From positions 1 through 7,428 of the forward strand of contig LADV01000143.1 of NCBI GenBank assembly GCA_000961805.1: a DNA stretch of 7,428 bases. Reading direction: 5' to 3'. Both the position numbers and the translations under genes were made by a program. The notes beneath the pieces were generated by a model. The model did not search any database. It was not told the DNA's origin and saw only the letters and a list, made by a program, of their open reading frames with translations. The stretch is from Peptococcaceae bacterium BRH_c23 (lineage in GTDB: Bacteria > Bacillota_B > Desulfitobacteriia > Desulfitobacteriales > Desulfitobacteriaceae). Positions within the stretch are counted from its first letter, which is position 1; each line of letters begins with the position of its first letter. Shown one piece after another: positions 678-7,428 of this stretch.

Positions 678-1142
678 CTACCGCTTTAGTCCTAGCGATC
701 TTAAAAACTTAGTAACCGCACCCTCCTGCTGAGATTGGTCTGCCTGCTCATATTTGGAAGGGCACTTGAGGTTAAGATTATCGGCCTGGAAAGTGCCATC
801 CTTGTTGAACTTACCTTCCACTACAGCCCCGGTTGCCTCTTGGAAATTATCGGGTTTGACATCGTTATAAATCACTATCAATCTCTTGTCGGGAGAGTTT
901 TCATCATAGATCTGAAACTTAAGTACGACCGGGTTACTTTTCCCGTCAAAGGTTGCCGTAGTGACATCAATTTTTCCTTCAATACGGTAATGCTTGCCAG
1001 GATCAACACTACCATTGATAGCTTCACTTACCTTTAGATAATAAGCTGCATTAGCAGTGCTAAACCCGGCAACTATCAAGTAGAAAACAGCGGCCACAAT
1101 TATAAGGATGCCAGCAGTTACTTTAAGGTTTTTTTGTCTCAT
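678..1142 (-). CDS. ccmE: CcmE heme chaperone, Cys-type (CxxxY) variant
   Basis: CcmE is the membrane-anchored heme chaperone that binds heme exported by CcmABC(D) and passes it to CcmF. The 154-residue product has a short basic N-terminus, one membrane anchor (about 9-31), then an OB-fold-like beta domain containing YYLKVSEA and YRIEGKI. Near the C-terminus the heme-binding motif reads C127-PSK-Y131. Enterobacterial CcmE has HxxxY, where the His binds heme covalently. A Cys-containing CxxxY variant is known from some sulfate reducers and archaea, and this gene belongs to that class. A charged tail of about 23 residues follows. The ATG at 1142 has a GGAGG seven bases upstream. It lies 18 bases after the 330-residue protein gene and 30 bases before ccmF. 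Confidence 0.94.
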   Translation of the reverse strand: MRQKNLKVTAGILIIVAAVFYLIVAGFSTANAAYYLKVSEAINGSVDPGKHYRIEGKIDVTTATFDGKSNPVVLKFQIYDENSPDKRLIVIYNDVKPDNFQEATGAVVEGKFNKDGTFQADNLNLKCPSKYEQADQSQQEGAVTKFLRSLGLKR

Positions 1143-1160: not shown

Positions 1161-2153
1161 CTACTTACTATCTTCTTTAATTTCGGCCAAGAGCTGGTTA
1201 TAAGTGTCCACATCAATCTTGCCATCTAGCAACATTTGCCGAAGTTTCCTTTTTTCTTGATTTCCAGCTTCCGCCTTACTAAGCTTTTTAGATACTGGCC
1301 CTTTTTTCTTGGCTACGGTCCCTTTATAAGTACCCTGTGCAGGTTGCTTATCCCTATTGAGGCCTAAGATTAGGATACCGGCCAAGATAGCAACAAACAA
1401 CAAGATAGGGATTAGGACCTCCGGTTTACTAAGCTGACTATTCCATCCCGGTGATAAACTTTGAGGGTTACTCTCACCGATTTGTGGCTGGTCGAAGCTT
1501 GGTTTATTATCCGGCTTGGTATAGTCAACTTTGACAGCTACATTATCTTTAGGCGTCTGATTTTTATAGTTAAAGGAAAATCTATCCAACCCTTTAGAAT
1601 CTTTCCCAGTCATACTTGCAGCTGGAGTCGTGACAAAATTACTAGCGTTTTTCGGGGCTACAATGTTTAAATCCAAGTTATCTATATCATCTGTCGGAAA
1701 AAATATGTAGTTAAACGTCTTGTTTGGAGCAGCCGAACCATTATCGTAATAAAATTCTAAATAGGCCGGATACTTCTGGTTGGGAGCGATGTCTTTGGTG
1801 ATTTTCCAACTGAGCTTCACTTTGTTATCGTCTAGATCCTGAGTAGTATACGGCTGGCAGTCATGACCCCCCTGGTCAGTAATTTCGCATGCCATACCTA
1901 TTTCCGCTCCCTTAGGGATGATAAAGGAAATAAGGGTGTCTTTCTTTATAGTTTCAGTGCCAGGATTAATGAAGTCCCCTTGATAAATTACTAACGTTCT
2001 TGGGGCATCATATTCTGGTTTGACGTCTACTTGAAAGTTTGTGGCCTTTAGACTACCACTCTCTGCCCACGCAACATTAGGGCTAAGGTGACTTATACTT
2101 AAGCTTAGGAGAAGTAAAACTATCGTTAAAAGCAATTTTGTATTTGTTTTCAC
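1161..2153 (-). CDS. exported single-TM protein of unknown function with SHOCT-like cytoplasmic tail, in ccm operon
   Basis: I do not recognise a named family. The 330 residues show a signal peptide (hydrophobic about 7-22, likely cleavage after AWA at 30), an extracytoplasmic beta-rich region of about 215 residues, one transmembrane helix (about 246-265), and a basic cytoplasmic tail. The last 30 residues, with LRQMLLDGKIDVDTYNQLL, resemble the short amphipathic SHOCT-type motif often found at protein termini. Only two cysteines occur outside the membrane, C89 and C99, ten residues apart, so a disulfide is possible. The GTG start at 2153 has AAGGAGAG about eight bases upstream. The gene is 18 bases upstream of ccmE, so a role in heme delivery or apocytochrome handling is plausible by position only. 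No thioredoxin fold (CxxC) or CcmH-type LRCxxC motif is visible. Confidence 0.85.
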   Translation of the reverse strand: MKTNTKLLLTIVLLLLSLSISHLSPNVAWAESGSLKATNFQVDVKPEYDAPRTLVIYQGDFINPGTETIKKDTLISFIIPKGAEIGMACEITDQGGHDCQPYTTQDLDDNKVKLSWKITKDIAPNQKYPAYLEFYYDNGSAAPNKTFNYIFFPTDDIDNLDLNIVAPKNASNFVTTPAASMTGKDSKGLDRFSFNYKNQTPKDNVAVKVDYTKPDNKPSFDQPQIGESNPQSLSPGWNSQLSKPEVLIPILLFVAILAGILILGLNRDKQPAQGTYKGTVAKKKGPVSKKLSKAEAGNQEKRKLRQMLLDGKIDVDTYNQLLAEIKEDSK

Positions 2154-2326: not shown

Positions 2327-2521
2327 CTATTTGCTCTTATGACCACTGCAGCAACCCGCGTCACCTGTACTTCTATCCTGTAGATCTTTCTCAGGACTAT
2401 CGTGCCGTTGCCCATGTTTCTTCCCACCGCCACAACAACCCGCTCCCCCTGGCCGATGCATAAAGAGCATTATAGCGATGAACAAGAAAACCCACCAATT
2501 TTGACTGATAAATTGCCACAT
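2327..2521 (-). CDS. 64-residue membrane miniprotein with two CC pairs and histidines
   Basis: The protein starts with MWQFISQNWW and one transmembrane helix (about 9-22). A short hydrophilic tail follows with GCCGGG (C29, C30) and GCCSGH (C57, C58), plus H22, H36, H40 and H61. Small one-TM proteins with Cys/His/Gly-rich tails are common near metal-handling and copper or heme genes, but I cannot name this one. It is real by several signs: a strong GGGAGGG about ten bases upstream of the ATG, position 63 bases after ccdA on the same strand, and a composition (paired cysteines, charged tail) unlike a random frame. Paired cysteines and histidines suggest metal or heme binding or a thiol-redox partner of CcdA; this is inference. 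The opposite strand is also open here but lacks a ribosome binding site and any sensible protein features. Confidence 0.75.
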   Translation of the reverse strand: MWQFISQNWWVFLFIAIMLFMHRPGGAGCCGGGKKHGQRHDSPEKDLQDRSTGDAGCCSGHKSK

Positions 2522-2584: not shown

Positions 2585-3337
2585 TCACATGCCCAGAGGC
2601 AAACGAGGCAGGAACTTAGCCAAGAAACCCGTCAGTTGAGTCAATTTGTCAGCGTAAATCACATACGAGATATAAAGCATTAGGAGGCCGGCTAGCCGTT
2701 CAACAACAATTTGCCAGCGACGCACCCTCTGCAAACTCTTCATAACCCAATTAAATGACATCCCTGCGATCATATACGGAATAGCCAGCCCTACGGAAAA
2801 AATAAACATAACTAACATTCCGCTGAACGGATTTTGAGTAGTGCCTGCTAAAGCTAGAATAGAGTAGAGAGTCGGGCCAATGCAATGGGAACAAGCAACG
2901 GCGAACAACAAGCCGACAACAAAGGATGACCAAGCACTGTATTTAGCCTTATTCCTTAACTTTTCGTAGAAGGCTGGTTCCCAGTGTAATTTAGCAAGAA
3001 ACGACAGATTGAAAACGCCCAAAAGCTTAAGCGATAAGATAAGGACAACTGTGCCACCCAAAATATTAAGCACGAACTGCCATTTACTGAGTATTGCACC
3101 AAGCTCTCCCGCAGCAGCTCCGGCAGCAGTAAACACCAGAGTAAAACCGCCGATAAAGGCTAGGGTATTCTTCAGAACTCGGCGACGCAGGAGTGCGTCC
3201 ATAGCCGTCTCTTTAAGTTGATCAGAAGTCAGCCCTGTAATCAGAGAAAAATAGACTCCTAACATCGGAATGATGCAGGGCGAGAGAAAAGAAAGAATTC
3301 CAGCAGCAAAAGCAATTGCTAATAACGACGTAGTCAA
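2585..3337 (-). CDS. ccdA: CcdA/DsbD-family transmembrane thiol-disulfide transporter
   Basis: CcdA moves reducing equivalents from cytoplasmic thioredoxin across the membrane to reduce apocytochrome c thiols or other extracytoplasmic thiols. The 250-residue protein has six to seven hydrophobic segments and the two family cysteines in typical context: LSPCIIP (C21) in the first helix and CIGPTL (C152) in a later helix. The length is normal for CcdA and shorter than DsbD, with no fused thioredoxin domain. An extra cysteine, C149, gives C-S-H-C where the family usually has a single Cys in a TPCIGP-like context. The start is TTG at 3337, since TAA is the only in-frame alternative upstream and AGGGTG lies five bases before it. 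It begins 21 bases after the GHH-motif gene. No thioredoxin-like partner (ResA/CcmG type) is visible in the window. Confidence 0.9.
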   Translation of the reverse strand: MTTSLLAIAFAAGILSFLSPCIIPMLGVYFSLITGLTSDQLKETAMDALLRRRVLKNTLAFIGGFTLVFTAAGAAAGELGAILSKWQFVLNILGGTVVLILSLKLLGVFNLSFLAKLHWEPAFYEKLRNKAKYSAWSSFVVGLLFAVACSHCIGPTLYSILALAGTTQNPFSGMLVMFIFSVGLAIPYMIAGMSFNWVMKSLQRVRRWQIVVERLAGLLMLYISYVIYADKLTQLTGFLAKFLPRLPLGM

Positions 3338-3358: not shown

Positions 3359-3865
3359 TTAGTAAACCCATGTGAAGTTACGCATCGGAACTCTGACTAA
3401 ATTCTTAATGACAAGTGTAACCTGACTGCCGGGTTTCAGTTCACTTAAATCTGTACTTTGTACTCCTATTTCAGCCGAAACGTGATGACCTTCTCCGCTT
3501 TTATTTAAAACTTTAACGACAGCTGGCACAGTGGTTCCACTAATCTTTAGTTCAGTATTCTCAGTAAAATCGAAATCATCCAGATTGGTCATATGATTGC
3601 TCATCGATACCGCAAATTTCTGCATCGAAGAATTTGAACCTTCTTTTTCCCAGGTAACGGTAACATCTACTCCTCCTTGGGTATCAAATAGCGGTGCACT
3701 CTCCGAGCCAGCGACCGAAGGGCTGGAAGAACCAGAGTTGTTAATACTGGTTGTATTAGGAGCTTGCTGCGCTTGATTTTGCGTAGCTTCAACTGTTTGG
3801 AGACCCCACCAAACACCTGCCCCTAAAATAATAATTAACGCAGCTGCAAGTACTCTTACCTTCAA
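3359..3865 (-). CDS. membrane-anchored extracytoplasmic protein with GHH motif, first gene of the ccdA operon
   Basis: The 168-residue product has an N-terminal membrane anchor or uncleaved signal (about 4-21), a low-complexity Gln/Asn/Ser/Pro linker (about 28-60), and a compact C-terminal beta domain starting at GGVDVTVTW. Within that domain, FAVSMSNHMTNLDDFDF (H91, D96, D97) and GEGHHVSAEIGV (H127, H128) recall a family I remember as having F-V-x-D-T-H...D and GHH motifs, with no function I can name. The histidines and acidic residues would suit metal or heme binding, which is inference. There is no cysteine, so it is not a thioredoxin-like partner of CcdA. The start is TTG at 3865 with GGGGAG six bases upstream. 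It lies 21 bases before ccdA and about 70 bases after the predicted -10 box, so it is the first gene transcribed from the operator-promoter at 3943-3997. Confidence 0.82.
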   Translation of the reverse strand: MKVRVLAAALIIILGAGVWWGLQTVEATQNQAQQAPNTTSINNSGSSSPSVAGSESAPLFDTQGGVDVTVTWEKEGSNSSMQKFAVSMSNHMTNLDDFDFTENTELKISGTTVPAVVKVLNKSGEGHHVSAEIGVQSTDLSELKPGSQVTLVIKNLVRVPMRNFTWVY

Positions 3866-3942: not shown

Positions 3943-3997
3943 ATAATACTTACACAATCCGACTAAGCTGTGAATGAGTTGTGAATTTCCTATGAAT
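3943..3997 (-). promoter_or_regulatory. OmpR-family-type operator and promoter of the ccdA operon
   Basis: Read on the minus strand, three direct repeats ATTCATA, ATTCACA and ATTCACA begin at 3997, 3986 and 3975, an exact 11-base period. After the last repeat come exactly 20 bases and then a -10 box TATTAT (3948-3943). No good -35 hexamer exists at the expected place, which overlaps the last repeat, as in activator-dependent promoters of the PhoB/PhoP class. The repeats fit the TT(A/C/T)A(C/T)A direct-repeat pattern of Bacillus PhoP. On the other strand, GTTGTGAAT closely resembles the TTTGTGAAT motif I recall for the redox regulator ResD. The same layout occurs at 4834-4888. A weaker alternative promoter is TTGTGT with TAGTAA at 15 bases. 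Confidence 0.7.
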
Positions 3998-4065
3998 AAA
4001 ATAACTATTTTTCGTTAAATTTGTTCTAGACATAAACATGAATAGTATAATCCTTACCAAATGCC

Positions 4066-4103
4066 AAAAGGGCAGTTTCTCCCTGTGAAGATACTGCCCT
4101 TTT
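4066..4103. terminator. bidirectional rho-independent terminator
   Basis: AAAAGGGCAGT (4066-4076) pairs perfectly with ACTGCCCTTTT (4093-4103), and three more pairs (TCT with AGA) can form inside after a T-T mismatch, leaving an eight-base loop. A-run and T-run flank the stem on both strands, so it can stop transcription in either direction. It lies about 70 bases upstream of the ccdA-operon operator and insulates that operon from read-through on the minus strand. Confidence 0.8.
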
Positions 4104-4340
4104 CTAGCCTACCCTCTAGGCACCTGCTGGCCTCGCGACTTCCAAGTTAAGACAACGACGCAGATGGATCTCTTGGATCCTCTAACCGTGCGAATAATAG
4201 GTCCACATATTAACCGTAGGACAGTCGAGAATATTACTAAAGCTGACTTAAGGATCCGAAGTATAGAGGATCAGAATACCAAAATTTTAAAACATATTGT
4301 TGCGGAACCGTAAGATGTATGGATAACTTATATTAAATAG
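4104..4340. other. gene-free stretch with unexplained inverted and direct repeats
   Basis: No gene is supported here. The stretch contains a nine-base inverted repeat, GATCCTCTA (4176-4184) against TAGAGGATC (4264-4272); a direct repeat TAACCGT (4183-4189 and 4211-4217); two GGATCC palindromes (4175-4180 and 4252-4257); and a short GTCC/GGAC pair inside. This could be a folded RNA or a decayed sequence. I recognise no known riboswitch, tRNA or small RNA. A 49-codon plus-strand frame starting with ATG at 4164 and ending at 4313 has no ribosome binding site. Confidence 0.4.
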
Positions 4341-4344
4341 CAAA

Positions 4345-4370
4345 ATTCCTCCCACAAAAGAGGGAGGAAT
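4345..4370 (-). terminator. terminator of the 136-residue membrane protein gene
   Basis: ATTCCTCCC (4345-4353) pairs perfectly with GGGAGGAAT (4362-4370) around an eight-base loop. On the minus strand the stem is followed by TTTTGCTATTT, a moderately T-rich tail. It lies 21 bases after the stop codon of the gene at 4391-4801, so that gene is probably transcribed alone. Confidence 0.75.
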
Positions 4371-4390
4371 GCAATAAGTCTTAAAGCACA

Positions 4391-4801
4391 TTAATGCCCG
4401 TGGATATCTTTCTGTTGTTGCGGCTGCTGTTGTTGCTGTTGCTGAGATGGTGGGATGACGGCTGAGATCGCTTGCGGCAAGGATGTAATAACCAAAATAA
4501 TCGAGATAATGGAAGATATAAGATACACCCACGCTGAAGGACGGTCATAACTCCACTTACGTTTAGCAACAAGAATAAACCACACTGAAACAACGAGGGA
4601 GACAAGTAAAAAGATGATCTTTGTTGACGGAGATAGTGATAATAGACTTGAGCTTAGAGTGGTTAGACCCAATGCAATCAAAAGAGTATGAACCCAGTGG
4701 TGGGAAGAAGCTATAATTGCAAACAGAACTGAACCAATTGCTTTGATTATGCCTCTATCCTTTTTTGCTTTTACATCCAGAATTACTTCGCTTTTGCTCA
4801 T
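4391..4801 (-). CDS. small polytopic membrane protein with SHHWVH motif and Gln/His tail, function unknown
   Basis: I do not recognise a named family. The 136 residues give a short charged cytoplasmic-looking N-terminus, then three hydrophobic stretches (about 19-50, which may be two helices; 61-79; and 88-107). The first long stretch contains SSHHWVHTLL, with H34, H35 and H38 inside the membrane region, a pattern that could bind metal or heme. The C-terminus is a polar tail: seven glutamines, Pro, three glutamines, then KDIHGH. The Gln run is encoded by mixed CAA and CAG codons. The ATG at 4801 has AAGGAGGG eight bases upstream. A dedicated operator-promoter lies at 4834-4888 and a terminator at 4345-4370, so it is a single-gene unit apparently controlled like the ccdA operon. 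A link to metal handling or respiration is inference from that. Confidence 0.8.
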   Translation of the reverse strand: MSKSEVILDVKAKKDRGIIKAIGSVLFAIIASSHHWVHTLLIALGLTTLSSSLLSLSPSTKIIFLLVSLVVSVWFILVAKRKWSYDRPSAWVYLISSIISIILVITSLPQAISAVIPPSQQQQQQQPQQQKDIHGH

Positions 4802-4833
4802 ATGTGACCCTCCTTAGTTACTTCTACATCCTC

Positions 4834-4888
4834 AGTGTAACTCTCTAATTCGAGGATCTCATGAAAAAGCTATGAATTTCTCATGAAA
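4834..4888 (-). promoter_or_regulatory. OmpR-family-type operator and promoter of the 136-residue membrane protein gene
   Basis: On the minus strand, TTTCATG, ATTCATA and TTTCATG begin at 4888, 4877 and 4866, again at an exact 11-base period. Exactly 20 bases follow before a -10 box TACACT (4839-4834). The repeats and the 20-base gap match the module at 3943-3997. The first repeat ends one base short of the stop codon of the upstream histidine kinase gene (TAA at 4892-4890), so the operator fills the whole intergenic space before the promoter. Confidence 0.7.
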
Positions 4889-4889
4889 A

Positions 4890-6383
4890 TTACTGTACCA
4901 CCATTTTCTTTGGTAAGATAATCGTAAACATTGTTCCTTCACCAGGTTTACTCCAGACACTGATGTGGCCTCCATGGGTTTCGATAATTCTCTTGACTAT
5001 GGCTAATCCCAGTCCAGTCCCACCCTGGGATCGACTTCTGGATTTGTCTCCTTTATAAAACCTCTCCCAAATCATCGGTAAATCCTCAGACGCAATCCCT
5101 ATGCCTGAATCTTTTATTTCAATCAGCACATTATCAGCCTTGTGAGCTATGGTAATTACAATTTCTCCCCCTCTAGGAGTATGGCGGATGGCGTTATCCA
5201 GTAGATTGATAAATACTTGCTTAATCCTATCACTATCTCCCCAAGCAAGCGGAGTTTTTCTGCTTATGTGAAATATCAACTTAACTCCTTTTTCTTCAAC
5301 CAGCGTACTAAAATTACTTTGCACGGAAGAAGCAAGTAATTTTAGGTCAACATAATTCATTTTAAAATCTTCATATCCCTCTTCCATTTTCTTTAAATCT
5401 AAGATATCTGTGATCAAACGTTTGAGACGTGCAGTTTCTTCATAAATATTATTTAAGTAAGAATTTTTTTCATTGACATCAACAGCAAGGTCATCCTGTA
5501 AAGCTTCTGTAAAGGCTTGGATAATGCTTAACGGAGTTTTCATTTCATGGGATAGATTGGAAACAAACTCCCTACGCGTCTGATCTAATCTTTCCAGTTG
5601 GGCCAGCTTTTCCTGGAGTTGACCGGAAACTGTATTCAAAGAATCGGCCAGAAGACCGACTTCATCATTGGTATTAATAGTTATCCGACGGGAAAAGTCT
5701 CCGTTGGCCATCGCCAGAGCAACCCGGCTCATGCTGCGTAATGGCTCGGACACCTTTTTCGAAAAGAGGTAACTGAGAGTTATTCCGAGGGCGAGCCCAC
5801 CCACAGTCGAATAAACTGTGATCGTCTTAAAGACAGCTAGTTGCCCGGCCAATGGTTCGATTGGAACATGAATTACGACCGCCCCTATCGAACTTTGGGG
5901 ATCCGTCACCGGAACACCTACCGTAAGAACCTGGGTATTGAAGAAGGGGTTATTACCCTTGTTAAAAACCGTTTCTCCGTTCAACAGCTTTTTTATATCA
6001 TCTTCAGTTAAAGGACTATAAGTAGGATCAGTAAGTACTAAGGATGTGTCTTTGGTACTTTTAGCAAAACCCTCAAATGTTTGGACAATACCATTCTTGT
6101 CATAGACCATGATATTTCCTTCAATTAAATCAGAAGCTAGTTTTACTTTTAAATCCATCGCCAGACTGTCATTTTCAGTGCTAGTAAAGTTGGCCACCTT
6201 TTTAGCTAAAGATGTTAATTGTTTAAATTGTACATCGTAGTAAATTTTATCCATAATGCTCATATGAAGAATCCCAGCTACCCCAATGACGATTAATGTG
6301 AGGATATTTATCACTATCCAAAGCTTTGTTACAATGCTGTTTGACTTCATCCTCATCCCCACTTCATCAATCTTCGTCTGCAC
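4890..6383 (-). CDS. transmembrane sensor histidine kinase (PhoR/ResE/WalK-like layout, no PAS), orphan in this window
   Basis: The kinase senses an extracytoplasmic or membrane signal, autophosphorylates and passes phosphate to a response regulator. In the longest form (497 residues), TM1 is about 20-41, an extracytoplasmic region of about 140 residues with PDC/Cache-like features follows, TM2 is about 184-207, and HAMP about 206-258. The H box is SHEMKTPLS (H279), the N box LLDNAIRHT (N397), G1 DSGIGI (425-430), the F box ERFYKGDKSRS, and G2 GGTGLGLAIVK (454-464). All catalytic motifs are intact. The GTG at 6383 lacks a ribosome binding site; the ATG at 6350 (486 residues) has GGGG six bases upstream and is the better start. 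No receiver or winged-helix gene adjoins it, which is unusual for this class. Upstream at 96 bases is the CC/Se-motif gene, likely cotranscribed. The layout matches PhoR/ResE without the PAS domain. Confidence 0.93.
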   Translation of the reverse strand: MQTKIDEVGMRMKSNSIVTKLWIVINILTLIVIGVAGILHMSIMDKIYYDVQFKQLTSLAKKVANFTSTENDSLAMDLKVKLASDLIEGNIMVYDKNGIVQTFEGFAKSTKDTSLVLTDPTYSPLTEDDIKKLLNGETVFNKGNNPFFNTQVLTVGVPVTDPQSSIGAVVIHVPIEPLAGQLAVFKTITVYSTVGGLALGITLSYLFSKKVSEPLRSMSRVALAMANGDFSRRITINTNDEVGLLADSLNTVSGQLQEKLAQLERLDQTRREFVSNLSHEMKTPLSIIQAFTEALQDDLAVDVNEKNSYLNNIYEETARLKRLITDILDLKKMEEGYEDFKMNYVDLKLLASSVQSNFSTLVEEKGVKLIFHISRKTPLAWGDSDRIKQVFINLLDNAIRHTPRGGEIVITIAHKADNVLIEIKDSGIGIASEDLPMIWERFYKGDKSRSRSQGGTGLGLAIVKRIIETHGGHISVWSKPGEGTMFTIILPKKMVVQ

Positions 6384-6479: not shown

Positions 6480-6770
6480 TTAATCCTCGTAGTACTTAAA
6501 TGATAACGAACTCCACCAAAGGTTCTTCCCCAGGGTTACTTCAGCCCGACCATTGTAAGCACTTAACTCATTATCGATATAGAGGGTTATTCCCGTTCGG
6601 TTTTCTACAGAGTAGTTGTCCAGTGGACGACGTGGATGCCCAAGTTCCATGTCTGGACTTGGTAACGTGCCTCCGCAGCATCCCGACAGGGTGCCGCGAA
6701 AGATTATTATTTCTCCACCTTTGCTTTGAATGTAACGTGCCGCTTCCGGCGCAATATCGACTTTCAACAC
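6480..6770 (-). CDS. HesB-like CC/Se-motif family small protein
   Basis: This 96-residue soluble protein starts MLKVDIAPEAARYI, carries SGCCGGTLP (C31, C32), continues with LGHPRRPLDNYSVE, and ends in ITLYIDNEL plus a hydrophobic C-terminus. The pattern matches, from memory, a small HesB/IscA-related family of anaerobic Bacillota annotated as a CC/Se-motif (seleno)protein, in which one of the adjacent cysteines can be selenocysteine. Here both are Cys codons. The single CC pair, with no C-terminal CxC of true A-type iron-sulfur carriers, argues against classic IscA activity. The molecular function is unknown; thiol or metal chemistry is likely. The start is GTG at 6770 with GGGGAGGG about six bases upstream; the next codon, TTG, is a less well placed alternative. 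A TATAAT -10 lies about 64 bases upstream. It is followed by the histidine kinase. Confidence 0.82.
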   Translation of the reverse strand: MLKVDIAPEAARYIQSKGGEIIIFRGTLSGCCGGTLPSPDMELGHPRRPLDNYSVENRTGITLYIDNELSAYNGRAEVTLGKNLWWSSLSFKYYED

Positions 6771-6956: not shown

Positions 6957-7428
6957 TTACTGAGCTTCTGGAGTTTCAGGTGTTGCCTCTGCTTCTGCTG
7001 CCTCAGGTGTTACCTCTGCTTCTACTTCAGGTGTTACCTCTGCTTCTACTACTTTAGGTGTTACCTCTGCTTCTACTACTTCAGGTGTTACCTCTGCTTC
7101 TACTACTTCAGGTGTTACCTCTGCTTCTACTACTTCAGGTGTTACCTCTGCTTCTACTGCTTCAGGTGTTACCTCTGCTTCTACTGCTTCAGGTGTTACC
7201 TCTGCTTCTACTGCTTCAGGTGTTACCTCTGCTTCTACTGCTTCAGGTGTTACCTCTGCTTCTACTGCTTCAGGTGTTACCTCTGCTTCTACTGCTTCAG
7301 GTGTTACCTCTGCTTCTACTGCTTCAGGTGTTACCTCTGCTTCTACTGCTTCAGGTGTTACCTCTGCTTCTACTGCTTCAGGTGTTACCTCTGCTTCTAC
7401 TGCTTCAGGTGTTACCTCTGCTTCTACT
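6957..7428 (-). CDS. C-terminal part of an acidic nonapeptide-repeat protein (5' end outside window)
   Basis: The minus-strand frame is open from the window edge to TAA at 6959-6957, giving 156 visible codons. From the edge inward it repeats EAVEAEVTP, then shifts near the C-terminus to EVVEAEVTP (three units), KVVEAEVTP, an eight-residue unit missing one codon, and EAAEAEATP, before ending ETPEAQ. The chain is highly acidic, with a proline every nine residues, no cysteine or aromatic residue and no hydrophobic segment, so this part should be extended and soluble, perhaps a spacer, stalk or wall-spanning region. The function cannot be told without the N-terminus. The coding strand is supported by the stop followed closely by a terminator; one of the other two minus frames has a TGA in every unit. 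All three plus-strand frames are open across the array, but the Gly-Val-Thr-Ser-like one has an in-frame TGA just before it and no start. Confidence 0.75.
   Translation of the reverse strand, partial: VEAEVTPEAVEAEVTPEAVEAEVTPEAVEAEVTPEAVEAEVTPEAVEAEVTPEAVEAEVTPEAVEAEVTPEAVEAEVTPEAVEAEVTPEAVEAEVTPEVVEAEVTPEVVEAEVTPEVVEAEVTPKVVEAEVTPEVEAEVTPEAAEAEATPETPEAQ
6979..7428. repeat. tandem array of a 27-base repeat, about 17 units, running off the window
   Basis: Units begin at 6979, 7006, 7030, 7057, 7084, 7111, 7138 and every 27 bases onward, the last being cut at 7428. Unit 2 is 24 bases long, having lost one codon. The ten full units from 7138 to 7407 are identical base for base, as is the visible part of the eleventh, while the units at the 3' end of the gene differ. 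This pattern indicates recent expansion or homogenisation by slippage or recombination. Reading frame is kept throughout. Confidence 0.95.

What the first reader, a model, noticed from the sequence alone, without database searches (positions are those of the whole stretch)
3943..4888. Two promoters share an identical three-repeat operator and 20-base spacing: a candidate redox/respiration regulon
Seen directly: on the minus strand, both modules have three TTCAYR repeats at exactly 11 bases (starts 3997/3986/3975 and 4888/4877/4866), then exactly 20 bases, then a TAnnnT -10 box (TATTAT; TACACT), and no good -35. The flanking bases differ, so this is not a simple duplication of the region. Known: an 11-base direct-repeat period overlapping the -35 is the hallmark of OmpR/PhoB-family activators; Bacillus PhoP boxes are TT(A/C/T)A(C/T)A, and I recall ResD as binding TTTGTGAAT-like sites. 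Inference: one response regulator activates both the ccdA-led cytochrome c maturation operon and the 136-residue membrane protein gene.
Basis: partly seen in the sequence, partly recalled or inferred. Interest (0 to 1): 0.75.

Follow-up and report, generated by a model that had tools for sequence, protein, structure and literature searches.

The report
Shared copper-stress switch in Desulfosporosinus promoters
Two promoters in this sulfate-reducing bacterium carry the same four-part binding site, one of well over a hundred in its genus, which probably lets one control protein, perhaps copper-sensing, switch on copper-defence and cell-envelope genes together.

Summary
Both minus-strand promoters have three TTCAYR units at exact 11-bp period, then 20 nt, then TAnnnT (coordinates are one base lower than stated). 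The window is from a Desulfosporosinus. The triplet occurs 174 times in 27 of 29 genomes of the genus, against 2 for the reversed control, 5 at 12-bp and 1 at 10-bp period. Of 135 distinct arrays fetched, 127 have a -10 in register.

This is best read as the operator of a lineage-specific OmpR/PhoB-type regulon. The best candidate regulator is a 230-aa response regulator whose partner kinase has a Met-rich extracytoplasmic loop; 25 of 40 copies lie within 5 kb of a site with a -10 (0.64 expected). Half the sites precede three families of unknown function, chiefly a Met-rich secreted protein; others precede csoR-copA, copZ, ccdA/cytochrome c maturation, PspA, SigI-RsgI and wall hydrolases. Most orthologues of the window's 136-aa gene lie near csoR/copA.

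A shared regulator is well supported. 'Redox/respiration' covers only part of the targets. Binding, activation and the copper signal are inferred.

The parts
3991..3996 (-). operator 1, unit 1 TTCATA
3980..3985 (-). operator 1, unit 2 TTCACA
3969..3974 (-). operator 1, unit 3 TTCACA
3958..3963 (-). operator 1, degenerate unit 4 GTCGGA, 11 bp after unit 3
   Evidence: position-specific conservation in 110 of 122 sites
3943..3948 (-). -10 box TATTAT, 20 nt after unit 3
3359..3865 (-). 168-aa predicted secreted protein, first gene of the ccdA-led operon
   Evidence: ORF; no Pfam family
2585..3337 (-). CcdA/DsbD_TM protein, 250 aa
   Evidence: Pfam PF02683; operator upstream in 3 of 3 orthologues
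2327..2521 (-). 64-aa Cys/His-rich small protein
   Evidence: ORF; no Pfam family
1161..2153 (-). 330-aa predicted secreted protein; in G002 and G015 its relative follows an operator and is followed by CcmE- and CcmF-like genes
678..1142 (-). CcmE
   Evidence: Pfam PF03100
3..647 (-). CcmF/NrfE-type heme lyase, cut by the window end
   Evidence: Pfam PF01578; NCBIfam TIGR03145 below cut-off for the fragment
4882..4887 (-). operator 2, unit 1 TTCATG, two bases after the kinase stop codon
4871..4876 (-). operator 2, unit 2 TTCATA
4860..4865 (-). operator 2, unit 3 TTCATG
4849..4854 (-). operator 2, degenerate unit 4 CTCGAA
4834..4839 (-). -10 box TACACT
4391..4801 (-). 136-aa membrane protein with a His-ending tail; 8 of 10 genus orthologues lie near csoR and/or copA

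Best explanation
Each module is the activator site of one regulon that, in the genomes searched, is confined to Desulfosporosinus and its family. Four 11-bp direct repeats (TTCATGAGAAA / TTCACAACTTT / TTCATGAGATn / nTCGTAT) would hold two tandem dimers of an OmpR/PhoB-family response regulator. The last unit sits 9 nt upstream of the -10, and no good -35 is present, so the bound regulator would recruit RNA polymerase itself (class II activation). The likely regulator is the conserved 230-aa response regulator (L068:1614-2306) with its partner kinase, whose Met-rich extracytoplasmic loop suggests sensing of Cu(I)/Ag(I) or envelope damage by them. Activation would raise secreted Met-rich proteins, copper efflux and chaperone genes, CcdA/cytochrome c maturation and envelope-repair genes together; in the window it would drive the ccdA-ccm operon and the 136-aa gene. 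Shown: the operator, its recurrence in 27 of 29 genus genomes and its neighbouring genes. Inferred: the regulator's identity (about 0.75), activation, and copper as the signal (about 0.55).
For: 174 triplets in 27 of 29 genus genomes vs 2, 5 and 1 in controls. 122 of 153 distinct sites have TAnnnT at exactly +20, and 127 of 135 arrays are in register at +20 or +9. Unit 4 is present in 110 of 122 sites and in at least one site of 23 of 26 groups (21 gene families, 5 sites without a called gene), and is a literal TTCAYR in 12 sites. Response regulator in 26 of 29 genus genomes; 25 of 40 copies within 5 kb of a site with a -10, 0.64 expected. Family-level co-occurrence 30/6/2/7, Fisher p 0.001. 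In loci chosen for the regulator: matrix sites 86, 86 and 150 bp upstream of it in three family genomes outside the genus set (L214-L216), 224 bp upstream on the same strand in G006 (L228), and 2.57 kb away in G011, which has no strict site. Strict sites with a -10 also lie upstream of the regulator on its own strand in G028 and G029. Met-rich loop in 22 of 22 partner kinases picked by an N-terminal pattern. The most frequent target (37 of 153 sites) is a secreted protein with 14% Met after residue 30. csoR and/or copA lie downstream of the 136-aa gene in 8 of 10 orthologues.
Against: No binding, expression or metal data. Two genomes (G014, G044) have sites with a -10 but no regulator at E 1e-75; their kinase search at E 1e-60 was also empty, but that call had no positive control. 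So another regulator may use the site, or assemblies are incomplete. Six family genomes have the regulator but no strict site with a -10: three have weaker sites at the regulator, G011 a one-mismatch site, G041 and G042 none in the locus fetched. No matrix hit above 10 in the regulator loci L212, L213, L217, L218, L219 and L221. Sites at the 6 haem-protein hits, and several other groups, have no -10 at +20. Many loci were fetched because they hold a site, so neighbour lists are biased; one search does not depend on that. Half of the sites precede proteins of unknown function and many of the rest are not copper genes. In CusS itself, loss of the methionine triad could be made up to a large degree by other sites (PMC10100754), so a Met-rich loop is weak proof of copper sensing.
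Confidence: 0.7

Rival explanations
1. A ResD-like regulator runs a redox/respiration regulon with these sites.
For: The ccdA-ccm operon, NrfD/ferredoxin, nitrate-reductase-gamma and haem-CXXCH proteins are among the targets; by my sorting redox genes follow 14 of 153 sites.
Against: The regulator that co-locates with the sites has a Met-rich partner kinase. Wall and envelope genes (26 sites) plus csoR, copZ and the 136-aa gene (13) outnumber redox genes (14), though 75 sites precede unknown families. The ResD box was found in no paper of the library, so the resemblance is recall only.
Confidence: 0.15
2. The sites are bound by several paralogous OmpR-family regulators, or by the partner of the window's own orphan kinase (4890-6383), rather than by one regulator.
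For: Operator 2 begins two bases after the stop codon of that kinase. G014 and G044 have sites but no detected 230-aa regulator. Several genomes hold 2-5 copies of the regulator.
Against: At E 1e-80 the window kinase has one close relative in 29 genus genomes (86% identical over its C-terminal half, interrupted, G001 C118), next to a truncated regulator; the other 11 matches are 36-38% identical. It therefore does not explain a genus-wide motif.
Confidence: 0.12
3. A Pho- or WalR-type regulon (phosphate or wall homeostasis) using a PhoP-like TTHACA box.
For: 11-bp direct repeats and wall hydrolase/SigI targets; PHO boxes are two 11-nt direct repeats (PMC4415409, passages).
Against: No phosphate uptake or phosphatase gene was seen among the first genes listed. 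PhoB and YycF NCBIfam cut-offs are not met: 230.5 vs 296.2 and 215.8 vs 340.
Confidence: 0.05
4. Chance or a copied stretch of DNA.
For: Many secreted-protein paralogues share promoter sequence beyond the operator.
Against: Sites of 26 groups without BLAST similarity at 1e-5 keep units and spacing, 23 of them also unit 4; controls are near zero.
Confidence: 0.01

Closest known systems
E. coli PhoB / PHO box (PMC4415409, passages read)
   Same: 11-nt direct repeat units bound head-to-tail by an OmpR-family regulator that contacts sigma. From recall, the box lies about 10 nt upstream of the -10 in place of a -35.
   Different: Different half-site, four units instead of two, no phosphate genes seen among first target genes, PhoB model cut-off not met.
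Corynebacterium glutamicum CopRS (PMC3140484, passages read)
   Same: Gram-positive two-component copper response; regulator binds a direct repeat; targets include a copper ATPase and a multicopper oxidase.
   Different: Its repeat is TGAAGATTTgaTGAAGATTT at what the authors take to be one genomic site; here there are four TTCAY-type units at many promoters and wider envelope targets.
E. coli CusRS (PMC10100754, passages read)
   Same: Membrane kinase with a methionine-containing extracytoplasmic loop, sensing periplasmic copper.
   Different: Heavy-metal NCBIfam cut-offs not met (172.8 vs 279.2; 217.4 vs 292.55); efflux and operator type differ (recall).
Cupriavidus metallidurans AgrRS (PMC7380067, passages read)
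   Same: OmpR-family metal-linked regulator that may act as a type II activator; a small periplasmic protein (prsQ2) is the most upregulated gene.
   Different: AgrR box is an inverted repeat ATTACA 6-4-6 with extra direct half-sites at some operators, not four tandem repeats.
Bacillus ResD/ResE and PhoP/PhoR (recalled)
   Same: OmpR-family; ResD controls cytochrome c maturation genes (recall).
   Different: No test here placed the regulator in either family.

Membership tests
OmpR/PhoB-type class II promoter | tandem direct repeats at 11-bp period | tested here: met
   174 vs 5 and 1 at periods 12 and 10 in 29 genomes
OmpR/PhoB-type class II promoter | site replaces the -35 at a fixed distance from the -10 | tested here: met
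   127 of 135 arrays in register; -35 match at most 4 of 6 in 122 sites
OmpR/PhoB-type class II promoter | regulator with receiver and winged-helix domains | tested here: met
   candidate has PF00072 and PF00486; that it binds is inferred
OmpR/PhoB-type class II promoter | binding to the repeats and activation | not testable with these tools
   needs footprinting and reporter assays
CusRS/CopRS heavy-metal two-component systems | regulator and kinase pass the curated family cut-offs | tested here: not met
   TIGR01387 172.8 vs 279.2; TIGR01386 217.4 vs 292.55
CusRS/CopRS heavy-metal two-component systems | Met/His metal-binding extracytoplasmic loop | tested here: inconclusive
   22 of 22 kinases have 5 or more Met in residues 29-165; metal binding not testable
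CusRS/CopRS heavy-metal two-component systems | copper genes among targets | tested here: met
   csoR-copA and copZ-type operons follow operators; regulation itself not shown
Pho regulon | phosphate genes as targets; PhoB/PhoP model hit | tested here: not met
   none seen among first genes; PhoB 230.5 vs 296.2
BaeSR/CpxRA envelope-stress systems | pass curated cut-offs | tested here: not met
   BaeR 225.1 vs 380; BaeS 281.4 vs 500; CpxR 171.4 vs 341
ResDE regulon | ResD orthologue binds; respiration genes are the core | tested here: inconclusive
   some redox targets; orthology to ResD not tested; ResD box recalled only

The most novel reading that the evidence does not exclude
An undescribed Cu(I)/Ag(I)-sensing envelope regulon of Clostridia-like sulfate reducers. 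A Met-loop kinase and a four-site, class-II-type regulator control from one to about two dozen promoters per genome, chiefly families of secreted Met-rich proteins that may act as copper sponges, and tie copper stress to cytochrome c maturation, SigI-RsgI and wall remodelling.
Probability: 0.45. Interest if true: 0.7.

Novelty: new member of a known kind. Interest (0 to 1): 0.55.

Why it matters
The operator gives a sharp, testable handle on a regulon found in 27 of 29 genomes of a genus whose members include strains from metal-rich and acidic sites (recall). It names a candidate regulator, a candidate signal and several protein families without known function (Met-rich secreted protein, PepSY-like protein, SHOCT proteins, the 136-aa membrane protein). 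If copper is confirmed, it would be a two-component copper response in Clostridia-type bacteria that also reaches cytochrome c assembly. My library searches listed no paper describing it. I judged from the listings only (2 of 2, 15 of 70, 7 of 7 and 10 of 334 papers shown); one search found none.

Tried and rejected
Chance was rejected by shuffles, reversed pattern and changed period. The window kinase as regulator partner was set aside because at E 1e-80 it has one close, interrupted relative in 29 genomes. Phosphate control was set aside because no phosphate gene was seen among the first genes. A phylum sample (299 genomes) had the full four-unit pattern in 3 genomes, G001, G005 and G006, all from the genus set. 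A fold of the Met-rich secreted protein gave an all-helical model of modest confidence (pLDDT 63, pTM 0.44) with no PDB match at E 0.001, so nothing is claimed from it. Rfam had no match at gathering scores in the window. Papers on ResD's box (79 seen as a listing only), pho-box geometry and DUF2680 with copper gave nothing usable. A paper on Desulfosporosinus and oxygen (PMC11451228, passages) did not bear on it.

Full report
What is there. The window encodes, on the minus strand, a kinase (4890-6383), a 136-aa membrane protein (4391-4801), and an apparent operon of a 168-aa secreted protein, CcdA, a 64-aa Cys/His-rich protein, a 330-aa secreted protein, CcmE and CcmF/NrfE. CcdA is 97% identical to Desulfosporosinus sp. 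I2. The 136-aa protein is listed for a longest contig of 208,618 bases, a length also listed for a Desulfosporosinus sp. BICA1-9 protein, so the host is probably that strain or a close one.

The observation. Strict TTCAYR triplets at 11-bp period occur twice in the window, at 3996/3985/3974 and 4887/4876/4865, each 20 nt before a TAnnnT box. 400 dinucleotide shuffles gave none.

Genus-wide test. In 29 genomes of the genus the same triplet occurs 174 times, in 27 genomes; the reversed pattern occurs twice (totals are my addition of the table). Period 12 gives 5 matches in 4 genomes and period 10 gives 1. With the -10 box included, 32 of 45 family genomes match and the reversed control once. I fetched the surroundings of most genus sites; those of G026-G031 and a few single sites were not in this count, and identical 120-base contexts were merged. 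Of 153 distinct sites, including the window's 2 and one from G003, 122 have TAnnnT exactly at +20; in the scan of offsets 10-29 the next were 22 (20 sites) and 15 (10 sites). A scan of offsets 0-39 adds 26 sites at +9 (9 of them also at +20), where the triplet's last unit takes the place of unit 4, and 16 at +4. In all, 127 of 135 distinct arrays are in register at +20 or +9; the other 8 are listed.

The fourth unit. The alignment shows nTCGTAT exactly 11 bp after unit 3. T35, C36 and A39 hold in 110 of 122 sites, against 0-47 at 15 other offsets; 12 sites have a literal TTCAYR there; 23 of 26 groups have at least one such site. Spacers are conserved too, and units 1+2 and 3+4 look like two copies of a 22-bp dimer site. 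Unit 4 ends 9 nt before the -10. From recall this is close to the PHO-box position at PhoB promoters.

Targets. First genes downstream fall into these groups (Pfam): a Met-rich secreted protein (37 sites), a PepSY-like protein (21; best Pfam match just under its cut-off), a SHOCT protein (17), NlpC/P60 hydrolase (13 sites in 7 loci), the 136-aa gene (9), SigI-RsgI (6 sites in 3 loci), proteins with CXXCH haem motifs (6 sites in 2 loci, none with a -10 at +20), the ccdA operon (4), TPR proteins (4), PspA (3 sites in 2 loci), CsoR-CopA (3), the 330-aa protein heading ccm (2), chemotaxis receptors (2), and single cases of M23 peptidase, CWB2 wall protein, FtsH and CopZ. NrfD/ferredoxin and nitrate-reductase-gamma genes also occur in target operons. 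Overlapping arrays are counted more than once here. By my sorting, 75 of 153 sites precede the three largest families, whose function is unknown, 26 wall or envelope-stress genes, 14 redox or cytochrome genes, 9 the 136-aa gene and 4 csoR or copZ. A few first genes are doubtful short ORFs from my own gene caller, and 10 of 153 sites had no gene called within 700 bases. 1 of 153 sites lies within a same-strand ORF of at least 90 aa.

The window's own two promoters in relatives. CcdA orthologues at E 1e-60 occur in 3 of 29 genomes, and all 3 have the operator upstream. The 136-aa gene occurs 10 times in 7 genomes at E 1e-20, and all 10 have it; 8 match the strict triplet and 2 have one-base departures. 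Downstream of the 136-aa gene lie csoR and/or a copA-type ATPase in 8 of 10; these were recognised by likeness to the Pfam-tested copies of L109. Six of 10 have a second operator (matrix score above 40) in between. The matrix was built from sites that include several of these, so the strict matches are the independent evidence.

The regulator. A 230-aa response regulator with receiver and winged-helix domains, followed by a kinase, occurs in 26 of 29 genus genomes. Of its 40 copies (one with an internal stop), 25 lie within 5 kb of a site with a -10, where 0.64 are expected. In the family, 30 genomes have both regulator and site, 6 regulator only, 2 site only, 7 neither; p 0.001. These genomes are related, so the p-value is optimistic. 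In loci fetched because they hold the regulator, three family genomes outside the genus set (G034-G036) have a four-unit site 86-150 bp upstream of the regulator gene, facing away from it, without the standard -10; in one (L216) it lies next to an operon of an FtrD-like protein and a MacB-type ABC transporter. G043 has two weaker sites just after the kinase and before a gene that looks like csoR. D. acidiphilus (G006, named by its contig length) has one 224 bp upstream of the regulator on the same strand. Six other such loci (L212, L213, L217, L218, L219, L221) show none above a score of 10. In G028 and G029 a strict site with a -10 lies upstream of the regulator on its strand (coordinates).

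The signal. The 22 partner kinases that I picked by an N-terminal pattern all have 5 or more Met in residues 29-165, with 1-7 MxM or MM motifs. In CusS a Met-containing loop takes part in copper sensing, although loss of its methionine triad could be made up to a large degree (PMC10100754, passages). The top target is a secreted protein with 14% Met after residue 30, above 97% of 968 ORFs of at least 80 aa in the fetched loci, a set that itself contains many targets. Together with csoR-copA and copZ this favours Cu(I)/Ag(I) or the envelope damage they cause. It is an inference.

Verdict. A real, lineage-specific operator family, best read as an OmpR/PhoB-type regulon. The full pattern was found in 3 of 299 phylum genomes, G001, G005 and G006, all from the genus set.

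Noticed in passing
window 4890-6383: Orphan sensor kinase with no response regulator beside it in the window. Its closest relative (86%, G001 C118) is interrupted and lies next to a truncated regulator; the other 11 matches at E 1e-80 are 36-38% identical.
   Followed up: partly
window 6957-7427: Open frame made of repeats of VEAEVTPEA or close variants, running off the window end.
   Followed up: no
window 6480-6770: CC/Se motif family (seleno)protein (NCBIfam NF041239 above cut-off).
   Followed up: no
G001: Desulfosporosinus sp. I2 holds five copies of the regulator gene, one with an internal stop.
   Followed up: partly
L070:14849-16918, L067:11324, L109: Arrays before SigI-RsgI and NlpC/P60 genes have a literal or near-literal TTCAYR as unit 4, so the regulon may feed a sigma-factor cascade.
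   Followed up: partly
G014 (L110, L111): Has consensus operators before the same targets but the regulator was not detected at E 1e-75, nor the kinase at E 1e-60; unexplained.
   Followed up: partly
L068:5093-5455, L075:10654-11016: Cys-rich proteins sit close to operators but on the opposite strand; the L068 copy is DUF326, copper-storage type by recall, and the L075 copy resembles it.
   Followed up: no
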